From Paracoccaceae bacterium (GTDB lineage Bacteria; Pseudomonadota; Alphaproteobacteria; Rhodobacterales; Rhodobacteraceae), in NCBI GenBank assembly GCA_019911965.1, contig JAIOJF010000054.1, forward strand, positions 1 through 45,612: a DNA stretch of 45,612 nt. The letters are read 5' to 3'. The first letter of the stretch is position 1, and each line of letters starts with the position of its first letter. The translations under genes were made by a program, and so were the position numbers. Below, in pieces: positions 15,460 through 42,562 of the stretch. The notes under the pieces are model-generated. The model made no database searches, had not been told where the DNA came from, and was given only the letters and a program-made list of their open reading frames with translations.

Positions 15460-16626
15460 TCAGCCGCGTCGTGCCAGCGCTTCGGCCACCAGAGCTGCCG
15501 CCGCCGCCACCGCCTCCTTGATGCTCAAGCTGGAGGTGTCGATCACCACCGCATCTTCCGCCGCAACCAAAGGCGCTTCGGCACGGTTGCGGTCGCGAGC
15601 ATCGCGGGCTTCGACATCTGCCAGCACCTCGTCCAAAGTGATATCCACGCCGCTGGCCTGCAATTCTGCATGCCGTCGCGCGGCCCGCACTTCGGGCGTG
15701 GCGGTGATGAACAATTTGATCTCGGCATCCGGGCAGATCACCGTGCCGATATCGCGCCCGTCCAGCACCGCACCGCCATCGCGCCGCGCGAATTTGCGCT
15801 GAAACTCGATCAGGGTGGCGCGCACGCCTTCATGCACCGCCACCTCCGACGCCGCCGCCGAAGCTTCGGGGCTGCGCAGATCATCCCGCGTCAGATCGCC
15901 GGGCTCCAGCGCCCGCGCCTCGGCTTCGGCGGTGGCGGCATCGGTGCCACCCGCCGCCAATGCCCTCACCCCGACGGCGCGGTACAACAGCCCGGTATCG
16001 AGATAGGCAAAGCGGAATTCCTTGGCAAGAACGCGCGATATTGTCCCCTTGCCCGCCGCCGCCGGGCCATCAATCGCCACCGTGAACTGCACCGCCGGTG
16101 CCGCCCCGAACAGCCGCCAGATCGCCCGGGCGATCAGCAGCACGATCAGAACGGTGATCGCGGCATCGAAGAAGAAGAATTTCAGCACGGTGAACCGGCT
16201 GGCACCCGCCACCAGTTCCGCCGAAAGCGTATCCGCCTGTGAGGTCAGCATCCGCACGATGGCGGCGTTTTCCAGATAGTCGAACAGCGCATAGCCAGCC
16301 GCGATCAGCGCCGCCCCCAGCCGCAGGATCAAGGGCCGCTCGCACAGCAGCCACCAGCAGCCAATCCCCAGCACCAGTGCCAGCATCGCCGGAAACACCG
16401 TATCGAGCCACATTGCGGGGCCAAGGTAGAACGCCGCCCCCTCCGGCGTCAGCGCGGCCAGAAATTCCTTTGCCTCGGCATGGGAATAGCCCAGCATGAA
16501 GTAATCGAACGCCGCGCCGCCGGAAGACAGGTCGGCGATCTTCGGGCCGACCCACAGGACCAATGCGCCGTACACCGCCAGGGTTGCCGCCACCAGCAAC
16601 CAATATAGCTTCCACCCCAGACTCAA
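15460..16626 (-). CDS. cmk: Four-helix membrane domain fused to cytidylate kinase
   Basis: A single open frame encodes an N-terminal membrane domain (residues 1-175, four hydrophobic helices) and a complete cytidylate kinase (about 179-388) with P-loop [21 protein letters not shown] and [15 protein letters not shown]. The kinase makes CDP from CMP; with four helices its active domain should face the cytoplasm. No stop codon separates the two parts. The TTG at 16626 is chosen because TTGA overlaps the upstream gene's stop and GAAGGG lies upstream; a longer in-frame start would lie inside the neighbour. A GTG at 16092, just before the kinase, could give a soluble form, but its ribosome site is weak. 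The membrane domain is a paralogue of the upstream gene's product. Confidence 0.85.
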
Positions 16627-17165
16627 CTCGTCAGCCCTTCGTTGCGGTTGCGTCGCCGGAACCTTAGCAGCAGAAGAACCAGAAAGAAAACCATTGCCAG
16701 CGTTGTCGCGCCGGACTTCAGCAGCGTCCATCGGCTTGCCGCCGTCACCATGTCGGCGGTAAGACCGGCAGGTCCGGCCTCCAGCATCGCCACGACCGCT
16801 TGGTTTTCCAAGTAATCCGCCACCGCGCCGATTATTGCCGCCGCCGCGATCGCTCGCGCCAGCCAGCGCCGCCGGTCCGGCCCGGCCAGCCCGTAGCCGC
16901 CCAGCGCCAGCACCATCGCCAGCATCGCCGGATAGGCACTATCCAGCCGGTGCTGAGCGCCCAGGTAGAAGGCTTGGCCTTCTTCGCTGAGCGCCGCCAG
17001 GAATGCCTCTGCCTCGGCAAAGGTATAGCCGCCCGGTCGCATGTCGAACGCCACCTGCCCACCCGCCGCCGCCGCGACCTGCGGCAGCGACCACAACACC
17101 ATTACGCCATAAAGCACCAGCGTTGCCGCCACCAAAGTCCAATACAACGCTCGCACAAAGCGCAT
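16623..17165 (-). CDS. Four-helix membrane protein, paralogue of the cmk-fused domain
   Basis: This 180-residue protein has four hydrophobic segments and no recognised family. It shares with the neighbouring fusion the pattern [33 protein letters not shown] and DYLEN-A, so the two arose by tandem duplication. The ATG at 17165 lies 4 bases beyond the aroA stop, with GAAGG just upstream inside the end of aroA. Its stop overlaps the TTG of the fusion. The C-terminus is basic (RFRRRNRN). The order aroA - membrane protein - membrane/cmk implies one transcript. Function unknown. Confidence 0.75.
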
Positions 17166-17169
17166 GTCG

Positions 17170-18522
17170 TTAACCTTCGTCGCGGCTGATCGTTGCACCA
17201 AGGCCCGCCATCAGGCCCTCAAAACCCGGAAACGAGGTTGCCACCGGCCCACCATCGTCCAGCGATACCGGTCGTTTCGATGCCATGCCGAGGCACAGGA
17301 ACGACATCGCGATCCGGTGATCCAGACGGGTTTCGCAGGTTGCCCCGCCCGGCACGCCGCCCGGCCCCATGCCGTGCACGATCAGGGTATCGGCATCCTC
17401 CTCCACCCGCACGCCCAGCGCCTCAAGCCCGCGCGCCATCGCGTCGATCCGGTCGCTTTCCTTGACCCGCAATTCCTTGACGCCGCGCATGATCGTGGTG
17501 CCTTCGGCGAAGGCGGCCACCACCGACAGGATCGGATATTCGTCGATCATCGAGGCGGCGCGCTCCGGCGGCACCTCGATCCCGCGCAGCGTTGGAGAGA
17601 ACCGCACACGCAGATCAGCCACCGGTTCGCCGCCTTCCTCGCGCGGGTTCTCGAAAACCAGATCGGCCCCCATCTCGCGCAGGGTGTCAAACAGCCCGGC
17701 CCGCGTGGGATTGAGGCCGATATTCGGCACCAGCACGTCCGAGCCTTCAACGATCAGCGCCGCCGCCACCGGGAATGCCGCCGAGGACGGATCGCGCGGC
17801 ACCGCGATGGCCTGCGGGCGCAGTTCGGGCTGGCCACGCAGCGTGATTACCCGGCCTTCGGGCGTGATCTCGGTAAAGATGCTGGCACCGAAACCGGCCA
17901 GCATGCGTTCCGTATGGTCGCGCGTTGCCTCGGCCTCGATCAGCACGGTTTCGCCGGGTGCGTTCAGTCCGGCCAGCAGCACAGCCGATTTCACCTGCGC
18001 CGACGGCACCGGCGAGACATAGCGCACCGGCACCGGATCAGCCGCCCCGACAATGGTCAGCGGCAGACGCCCGCCCCTGCGGCCATAGGCGCGCGCACCG
18101 AACAGCGCCAGGGGATCGGTGATCCGCCCCATCGGGCGCGACCTGAGGCTGGCATCGCCGCTGAACGTGGCGGTGATCGGCGTTGTCGCCATCGCCCCCA
18201 TGATCAGGCGCACACCGGTGCCGGCATTGCCGCAATCAATCACGTTGTCCGGCTCGCAAAAACCACCGACGCCGACGCCCCTGATCCGCCATTCGCCATC
18301 GCCAACGCGCTCGACCGTCGCGCCGAAGGCCCGCATCGCGGCGGCGGTATCCAGCACGTCCTGACCCTCCAGCAGGCCGGAAATCCGCGTCTCGCCCACG
18401 CTGAGGGCACCGAGGATCAGCGAGCGGTGCGAGATCGACTTGTCGCCGGGCACCTCGGCCACGCCGTTCAGGGGGCCGCTGGCGCGGGCGGTCATGGGGA
18501 TGGGGGTGGCGTGGCCTGACAT
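17170..18522 (-). CDS. aroA: 3-phosphoshikimate 1-carboxyvinyltransferase (EPSP synthase, class II)
   Basis: AroA joins phosphoenolpyruvate to shikimate-3-phosphate, the sixth step of the shikimate pathway to aromatic amino acids. The 450-residue product is of the CP4-like class [59 protein letters not shown] and ELRVKESDR are all present. At the glyphosate-determining site it reads GNAGTG, with Gly where the Agrobacterium CP4 enzyme has Ala100, so insensitivity should not be assumed. The gene heads a unit with the membrane protein and the cmk fusion, matching the aroA-cmk neighbourhood common in Rhodobacterales. Confidence 0.95.
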
Positions 18523-40795: not shown

Positions 40796-42481
40796 TTATT
40801 TGCCGTCCTGACCTTTCAGCGCCGCGCCCAGGATATCGCCCAGCGACGCCCCGGAATCGGACGAACCGTATTGTTCCACGGCTTCCTTTTCCTCGGCAAT
40901 CTCGCGGGCCTTGATCGACAGGCCAAGGCGGCGCGAAGATTTGTCGATATTGGTCACGCGGGCATCGACATGATCGCCGACCGAGAAACGCTCGGGGCGC
41001 TGTTCGGAACGATCGCGGCTGAGGTCCGAGCGGCGGATGAAGGCTTTCATGCCGTCATATTCCACTTCGATGCCGCCATCCTCGATCTTGGTCACGGTCA
41101 CGGTGACAACCGCACCGCGCTTCACGCCCGAGGTCGCGTCGGCGAACTTGTCGCCTTCCAGCGCCTTGATCGACAGCGAAATCCGTTCCTTGTCGGTATC
41201 GACGTCAGTCACCACCGCCTTGACGATATCGCCCTTGCGGTAATCTTCCATCGCTTCCTCGCCGGACCGGTTCCAGTCCAGGTCGCTCAGGTGGACCATG
41301 CCGTCGATATCGCCGTCGAGGCCGACAAACAGGCCAAACTCGGTGATATTCTTGACTTCGCCCTCGACCACGGTGCCGGTCGGGTACTTGGCCTGGAAGG
41401 TCTCCCACGGATTGCCCTGGGTCTGTTTCAAACCCAGCGAAACCCGGCGCTTGGCGCTGTCGATTTCCAAGATCATCACCTCAACCTCCTGCGAGGTGGA
41501 AACGATCTTGCCCGGATGGACGTTTTTCTTGGTCCAGGACATTTCCGAAACGTGCACCAGGCCTTCGACGCCCGGCTCCAGTTCGACAAATGCGCCGTAA
41601 TCGGTGATGTTGGTCACCCGACCGGTATGCACGCTTTCCAGCGGGAACTTGCCTTCGACCAGGTTCCACGGATCTTCCTGAAGCTGCTTCATGCCCAGGC
41701 TGATGCGGTGGGTGTCCTTGTTGATCTTGACGATCTGCACCTTGATGGTTTCGCCGATATTCAGGATTTCCGACGGGTGGTTGACCCGGCGCCAGGCCAT
41801 ATCGGTGACATGCAGCAGGCCGTCGACACCGCCGAGATCGACGAACGCGCCGTATTCGGTGATGTTCTTGACCACGCCGTCAACAGTGTCGCCCTCGTTC
41901 AGCTTGCCGACAATCTCGGCGCGCTGTTCGGCACGGCTTTCTTCCAGGATGGCGCGGCGGGAGACAACGATATTGCCCCGGCGGCGGTCCATCTTCAGGA
42001 TCTGGAACGGCTGCGGCATGCCCATCAGCGGGCCGGCATCGCGCACCGGGCGCACATCAACCTGGCTGCCCGGCAGGAACGCCACGGCACCGCCCAGGTC
42101 GACGGTGAAGCCACCCTTGACGCGGCCGAAAATCGCGCCTTCGACGCGCTCTTCCTTCTCGGCGGCTTTTTCCAGGCGGTCCCATGCCTCTTCGCGGCGG
42201 GCCTTGTCGCGGCTGACCACGGCTTCGCCGCGGGCATTCTCGACACGCTCCAGATAGACCTCGACGGTATCGCCGACGGCGATTTCCGCGGCCTGACCGG
42301 GGGCGGCAAATTCTTTCAGATCGACGCGGCCTTCCATCTTGTAGCCGATATCGACGATGGCCTGACCGGCTTCGATCGCCAGTACGGTGCCTTTGACAAC
42401 AGAGCCCTCTTCGGGGGTCTCCAGTTCGAAGCTCTCGCTCAGGAGGGCTTCAAATTCTTCCATAGTTGCAGTTGCGGACAT
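40796..42481 (-). CDS. rpsA: 30S ribosomal protein S1
   Basis: S1 binds mRNA leaders on the ribosome to aid initiation. The 561-residue product carries six S1 (OB-fold) repeats; clear repeat cores are GGVDGLLHVTDMAWRR, PGVEGLVHVSEMSWTKK and GDIDGMVHLSDLDWNR. The start at 42481 gives MSATATMEEFEALL and has a purine-rich AAAAGGAAACAG upstream; the in-frame extension to 42502 starts inside this site. It has a good promoter at 42675-42647, a leader of about 160 bases with a hairpin, and a terminator downstream. In relatives cmk lies directly upstream of rpsA, whereas here cmk is 24 kb away. Confidence 0.97.
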   Translation of the reverse strand: MSATATMEEFEALLSESFELETPEEGSVVKGTVLAIEAGQAIVDIGYKMEGRVDLKEFAAPGQAAEIAVGDTVEVYLERVENARGEAVVSRDKARREEAWDRLEKAAEKEERVEGAIFGRVKGGFTVDLGGAVAFLPGSQVDVRPVRDAGPLMGMPQPFQILKMDRRRGNIVVSRRAILEESRAEQRAEIVGKLNEGDTVDGVVKNITEYGAFVDLGGVDGLLHVTDMAWRRVNHPSEILNIGETIKVQIVKINKDTHRISLGMKQLQEDPWNLVEGKFPLESVHTGRVTNITDYGAFVELEPGVEGLVHVSEMSWTKKNVHPGKIVSTSQEVEVMILEIDSAKRRVSLGLKQTQGNPWETFQAKYPTGTVVEGEVKNITEFGLFVGLDGDIDGMVHLSDLDWNRSGEEAMEDYRKGDIVKAVVTDVDTDKERISLSIKALEGDKFADATSGVKRGAVVTVTVTKIEDGGIEVEYDGMKAFIRRSDLSRDRSEQRPERFSVGDHVDARVTNIDKSSRRLGLSIKAREIAEEKEAVEQYGSSDSGASLGDILGAALKGQDGK

Positions 42482-42562
42482 GTATTTCTGTTTCCTTTTC
42501 AAGTCTTTGCGGGCCAGGTGGTTGTCTCCACCGGTCTTTCAGATATTGGCGTTTGAAGCAGC

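What the first reader, a model, noticed from the sequence alone, without database searches (positions are those of the whole stretch)
15460..17165. Cytidylate kinase fused to a four-helix membrane domain, beside a tandem paralogue of that domain
Seen: one uninterrupted minus-strand frame joins a membrane domain to a full-length cytidylate kinase, and the gene just upstream encodes a free copy of the same domain; the two genes overlap as TTGA. Known: cytidylate kinase (Cmk) is normally a soluble protein of about 210-230 residues. Inference: the fusion would tether CDP supply to the membrane, possibly near CDP-diacylglycerol or lipid synthesis, and the free paralogue could pair with the fused one. 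An internal GTG at 16092 could also yield soluble kinase, giving two forms from one gene. I know of no description of this architecture.
Basis: partly seen in the sequence, partly recalled or inferred. Interest (0 to 1): 0.75.

Follow-up and report, generated by a model that had tools for sequence, protein, structure and literature searches.

The report
Membrane-anchored CMP kinase from gene fusion
In this bacterium the only CMP kinase gene found, for a normally soluble nucleotide-recycling enzyme, reads in one frame with a small four-helix membrane protein that in its close relatives is a separate gene, so the enzyme is probably fixed to the inner face of the cell membrane.

Summary
Minus strand 16626..15460 is one open frame of 388 codons joining a four-helix membrane domain (memB) to a complete (d)CMP kinase. 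A free relative (memA, 17165..16623) lies upstream and overlaps as TTGA. It is the only PF02224 match in the genome. In 9 of 9 other held genomes of the genus the membrane match and cmk are separate. Among 394 family genomes only the window gives a stop-free match over both domains, in a list the tool cut. The membrane family has no convincing Pfam, NCBIfam or PDB match. It was detected in 86 of 295 family genomes; of the 85 others, 65 have a copy beside aroA and/or cmk, and in 40 of 50 loci it ends within 20 nt of, or overlaps, the cmk start. So a neighbour became fused in one known lineage. memA and memB are not a recent duplication (AU p 0.004). GTG 16092 sits at the canonical Cmk start, so a soluble form may also exist. 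Charge pattern and model suggest a cytoplasmic kinase on the membrane. No reads could be checked; any advantage is inferred.

The parts
16623..17165 (-). memA: free four-helix membrane protein, 180 aa, with T-x-x-K-S
   Evidence: 48% to memB over residues 7-168; ASRWTLLKS; AlphaFold2 mean pLDDT 78.7
15460..16626 (-). memB-Cmk fusion frame, 388 aa, TTG start; the only PF02224 match of the genome
16110..16626 (-). memB membrane domain, about residues 1-172, with T-x-x-K-F
   Evidence: row of alignment A1; profile E 5.2e-65
15460..16092 (-). Cmk domain from the internal GTG (residues 179-388)
   Evidence: PF02224 183-380; E. coli Cmk 1cke at E 3e-37
16042..16068 (-). Cmk P-loop GPAAAGKGT (residues 187-195)
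   Evidence: Sequence
16090..16092 (-). GTG at the canonical Cmk start position; possible internal start
   Evidence: -6.3 kcal/mol, equalled or beaten by 15% of 325 internal codons
16101..16107 (-). possible Shine-Dalgarno GGGGCGG before GTG 16092
   Evidence: weak
16635..16640 (-). possible Shine-Dalgarno GAAGGG before TTG 16626
   Evidence: -5.0 kcal/mol; 33% of internal codons do as well
16623..16626 (-). TTGA overlap of memA stop and memB-cmk start
17170..18522 (-). aroA (EPSP synthase); ends 4 nt before the memA start
   Evidence: PF00275 at 327.4 bits

Best explanation
A fusion, so far seen in one lineage, has joined the housekeeping enzyme (d)CMP kinase to its upstream neighbour, a four-helix inner-membrane protein of an unnamed family. 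Shown by sequence: one frame, a complete kinase domain, a membrane domain with the family's conserved residues, no second PF02224 match in the genome, separate genes in the 9 other genus genomes. Inferred from topology: both ends of the membrane domain face the cytoplasm, so the kinase is held at the inner face of the membrane by a tether of about 8 residues. Inferred: a second, soluble form may start at GTG 16092. Inferred and least certain: anchoring places Cmk where CMP is released by phospholipid and LPS synthesis, or makes permanent an association with the membrane protein that in relatives is only a close neighbour.
For: One PF02224 match in the own genome. One stop-free frame with coding-type third-position GC through the joint. 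Kinase above both cut-offs and aligned to E. coli Cmk. memB, itself a row of alignment A1, shares the 15 columns invariant in it, the start residue included. Basic residues in the N-term, loop 2 and C-tail, acidic ones in loops 1 and 3: N-in/C-in. In the fusion model the last membrane helix ends at 173 and kinase strand 1 begins at 182. Neighbourhood: beside aroA and/or cmk in 65 of 85 genomes; overlap or gap of 20 nt or less before cmk in 40 of 50 loci, 12 of them a 4-nt overlap. In 5 of those 50 loci both genes are already in the same frame, with one or more stops and 12-108 nt between them.
Against: No relative shares the fusion: 0 of 9 in the genus and none other in the listed rows for 394 family genomes, so conservation cannot vouch for function. 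The membrane gene was not detected in 209 of 295 family genomes, so Cmk works without it there. A sequencing error at the joint is not excluded. Internal initiation could make soluble Cmk the main product. In the fusion model the membrane half is at pLDDT about 40-65, the kinase mostly 81-95 with dips to 57-65. The cytidylate-kinase-like family PF13189 was not searched in the genome. No experiment bears on location.
Confidence: 0.6

Rival explanations
1. Chance fusion of two close neighbours, nearly neutral. The kinase tolerates an N-terminal extension, and the tether has no metabolic purpose.
For: The genes are tightly packed in relatives (40 of 50 loci within 20 nt or overlapping) and in 5 of 50 already in one frame, so few mutations are needed. 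Seen in 1 of 10 genus genomes. Most family genomes lack a detectable membrane gene.
Against: Both halves keep conserved residues. Nothing here measures fitness either way.
Confidence: 0.45
2. Mainly soluble Cmk by internal initiation at GTG 16092; the full-length fusion is a minor product, or serves mainly to make memB. One gene gives two forms.
For: GTG lies exactly at the canonical start. Its duplex energy (-6.3) lies within the range of candidate cmk starts found by pattern in relatives (-2.5 to -12.0).
Against: 15% of 325 internal start-like codons score as well. A GTG there may simply be Val.
Confidence: 0.3
3. A sequencing or assembly error has removed a stop or shifted the frame at the joint; the real genome has separate memB and cmk genes as in relatives.
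For: 9 of 9 genus relatives have separate genes. A one-base shift near the joint would end memB at a stop about 7 codons into cmk (frame 2, codon 184); one substitution at TGG 170 would also give a stop.
Against: The overlap so made, about 22 nt, would be longer than any of the 50 relatives' (4 nt at most to the canonical start). Homology to G007 is ungapped through the last helix and third-position GC is 0.92 across the joint, leaving about 10 codons for an error.
Confidence: 0.1

Closest known systems
(d)CMP kinase, Cmk (PF02224, TIGR00017)
   Same: Full kinase domain with P-loop, above both curated cut-offs; near aroA as in relatives.
   Different: Carries a 178-residue four-helix membrane part in front.
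AroA-Cmk bifunctional protein (NCBIfam NF008816)
   Same: Cmk fused in frame behind an upstream neighbour of the aroA-cmk group.
   Different: There the partner is AroA; here aroA is separate and the partner is the membrane protein. Score 153.8 against a cut-off of 943.
PanC-Cmk (NF010004) and Cmk-Der (NF007071) bifunctional proteins
   Same: Other Cmk fusions curated by NCBI.
   Different: Partners are other enzymes (soluble, recalled); scores 156.9 and 137.7 against cut-offs of 524 and 953.
Unnamed four-helix membrane family between aroA and cmk
   Same: memA and memB are members (profile E 4.1e-69 and 5.2e-65, both rows of the profile).
   Different: In the loci whose sequence I read, the other copies are not joined to cmk.

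Membership tests
(d)CMP kinase (PF02224 / TIGR00017) | Score above curated cut-off | tested here: met
   185.1 vs 26 bits; 170 vs 135.55 bits
(d)CMP kinase (PF02224 / TIGR00017) | P-loop and substrate-binding region aligned to solved E. coli Cmk | tested here: met
   1cke, E 3e-37, residues 179-384, covering [32 protein letters not shown]; roles of single residues recalled
(d)CMP kinase (PF02224 / TIGR00017) | Phosphorylates CMP/dCMP | not testable with these tools
   Needs an assay
Four-helix membrane family (this report) | Invariant columns of alignment A1 and profile match | tested here: met
   partly by construction, since memA and memB are rows of A1. Independent: 48% identity between the two and BLAST matches of memB to genus relatives
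Known families as home for the membrane domain | Match to a Pfam or NCBIfam family, or a PDB chain or fold | tested here: not met
   Best of 15 members: Pfam E 0.056, NCBIfam E 0.012, each in 1 member; 0 PDB chains at E 5; Foldseek best E 0.72
AroA-Cmk bifunctional (NF008816) | Curated score cut-off over AroA and Cmk | tested here: not met
   153.8 vs 943 bits, Cmk part only
Membrane-anchored enzyme | Inserted in the membrane with the kinase in the cytoplasm | tested here: inconclusive
   Helices and charge pattern agree; no experiment

The most novel reading that the evidence does not exclude
The fusion is a 'Rosetta stone': in this bacterial family Cmk can work with an undescribed four-helix membrane protein, of which two kinds (T-x-x-K-S and T-x-x-K-[FYW]) may pair, as a membrane-side module that returns the CMP set free by phospholipid and LPS synthesis to CDP. 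The four tandem pairs seen in the aroA-cmk gap each hold one of each kind.
Probability: 0.2. Interest if true: 0.65.

Novelty: new variant of a known kind. Interest (0 to 1): 0.42.

Why it matters
Cmk is known as a soluble enzyme (recalled), and this would be a membrane-anchored form serving as the only copy found in the cell. It also points to an unnamed membrane family that, where present, mostly sits beside aroA and cmk. That makes a direct test possible: does CMP recycling happen at the membrane where CMP is made?

Tried and rejected
Recent tandem duplication of memA: rejected by tree and AU test. Other membrane-Cmk fusions: 38 further loci, most chosen for long open frames from the listed rows and a few others, not all genomes; 37 had no hydrophobic stretch before cmk and 1 (L144, whose frame runs on from what looks like AroA) had a single one. 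The tails of the long frames read like out-of-frame sequence or AroA; I did not check each against aroA. G018 looked joined from an 'open frame 419'; its sequence shows two stops between the genes. Known fold for the membrane domain: none found. Two clean subfamilies: the K-[FYW] rows do not form one clade in the tree. Papers: listings only (11 listed of 11; 14 of 15; 2 of 2; 15 of 28; 7 of 7; 6 of 6; 12 of 1,483); no listed title or abstract start names a membrane-Cmk fusion. Of PMC1173090 I saw 12 of 19 passages found by term. Alignment A2 placed memA badly and was not used. Searches found jobs unfinished; collected.

Full report
What is there. The window is the whole of contig C34 of a draft genome of 3.67 Mb in 60 contigs, 99.4% complete, 1.7% contamination. 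On the minus strand the order is aroA (18522..17170), memA (17165..16623), memB-cmk (16626..15460); a convergent aldehyde dehydrogenase gene follows on the plus strand. The memA stop and the memB start share TTGA. The 388-codon frame has no internal stop. Its C-terminal part is a full (d)CMP kinase, and the genome holds no other PF02224 match; the related family PF13189 was not searched. Its N-terminal part resembles memA (48% over memA residues 7-168). The membrane domain has no convincing Pfam or NCBIfam family: the best of 15 members reach E 0.056 and 0.012.

Is it real? Third-position GC is 0.92 for codons 159-184, against 0.73 and 0.46. Homology to the gene of G007 is ungapped through the last helix, and Cmk homology starts at residue 179. 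About 10 codons remain in which one error could have made the fusion. TGG at residue 170 is one substitution from a stop. A one-base shift would end memB about 7 codons into cmk, an overlap of about 22 nt, longer than the 4 nt that is the most among 50 relatives. No reads were available.

Relatives. In 9 of 9 other genus genomes the membrane match and the cmk match are separate; in G008 they lie on two contigs, and in G009 the contig begins at the membrane gene. In 394 family genomes (the window's included) searched with the fusion protein, 387 had a match. In the listed rows, which the tool cut, only the window gives one stop-free stretch over both domains; G095 and G105 give one stretch with a TGA inside. 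Their sequences show separate genes in one frame, 12 and 51 nt apart.

The membrane family. A profile of 15 members finds 86 of 295 family genomes, 12 of 385 class genomes and 30 of 398 phylum genomes, the window's counted each time. So it was not detected in 209 of 295 family genomes. For the 85 other genomes I read the surroundings: 65 have a copy within 300 nt downstream of aroA or 200 nt upstream of cmk, 41 have one copy next to both, 20 have neither. In 50 loci with a copy close to cmk the gap from its stop to the canonical cmk start is 20 nt or less, or an overlap, in 40; a 4-nt overlap occurs in 12. That spacing suggests translational coupling (inference). A published survey, of which I saw 12 passages, calls the alpha-proteobacterial order aroF > cmk > rpsA quite uniform (its aroF being, by my reading, EPSP synthase); those passages do not mention this insertion (PMC1173090).

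History of the two copies. In a tree of 53 members memB joins the G007 gene (100/99) and memA joins G003, G004 and G006 (96/94). Forcing memA and memB together costs 48.6 log units, AU p 0.0036. In the aroA+cmk tree of 18 genomes, 8 of them of the genus, G007 is sister to G003, not to the window's genome (96/95). So two older forms are present, with losses or transfers since (inference). At the last invariant K, memA reads K-S and memB K-F; across the 53 rows it is K-S/A/T or K-F/Y/W. Three of the 85 other genomes have two copies in the aroA-cmk gap, G122, G132 and G236, and they too hold one of each kind. Against reading much into this: I noticed it after seeing the rows, the K-[FYW] rows do not form one clade, and four mixed pairs of four would arise by chance about once in 16 if the kinds were equally common.

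Structure and topology. AlphaFold2 on memA with memB, two sequences only, gives four long helices and two short ones between the first two, mean pLDDT 78.7, pTM 0.66. Foldseek found no PDB match under E 0.7. Basic residues lie at the N-term, loop 2 and C-tail, acidic ones in loops 1 and 3; by the positive-inside rule (recalled) both ends face the cytoplasm. In the fusion model the last membrane helix ends at 173 and kinase strand 1 starts at 182; the kinase is mostly at pLDDT 81-95 with dips to 57-65, the membrane part about 40-65.

Two products? GTG 16092 aligns with the start codon of relatives' cmk. Its pairing of -6.3 kcal/mol lies within the range of candidate cmk starts found by pattern in relatives (-2.5 to -12.0), but 15% of 325 internal in-frame start-like codons do as well. 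A soluble form is possible, not shown.

How it works, most likely. A membrane-held, cytoplasm-facing Cmk: the architecture is shown by sequence, the location inferred. A benefit might be recovery of CMP released at the membrane by CDP-alcohol phosphatidyltransferases and by CMP-Kdo use (recalled biochemistry; inference); a neutral fusion is about as likely. Novelty: Cmk fusions with AroA, PanC and Der are catalogued. A membrane-Cmk fusion did not show in the listings, which cover open-licence papers only and of which one search listed 15 of 28 and 12 of 1,483.

Noticed in passing
window 40796-42502 (-): rpsA (six S1 domains) lies in the same contig about 22 kb from aroA and 25 kb from cmk, so the cmk-rpsA neighbourhood is broken here; a convergent aldehyde dehydrogenase gene follows cmk instead.
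   Followed up: partly
L084 2594-3019 (+); L036 2379-2780 (-); L039 2991-3395 (+): A GFA-family gene (PF04828) sits between aroA and cmk in some relatives, beside the membrane gene (G012, G024) or in its place (L084).
   Followed up: partly
L088, L089, L090 and window 16110-17165: The four tandem pairs of the membrane family seen in the aroA-cmk gap each hold one K-S kind and one K-[FYW] kind, in either order.
   Followed up: partly
L034 1037-2376 (+): The aroA match of G018 is split over two frames, as if frameshifted; it may be a sequencing error.
   Followed up: no
L100, L104, L105, L040, L042: Further copies of the membrane family lie away from aroA and cmk in several genomes; their neighbours were not identified.
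   Followed up: no
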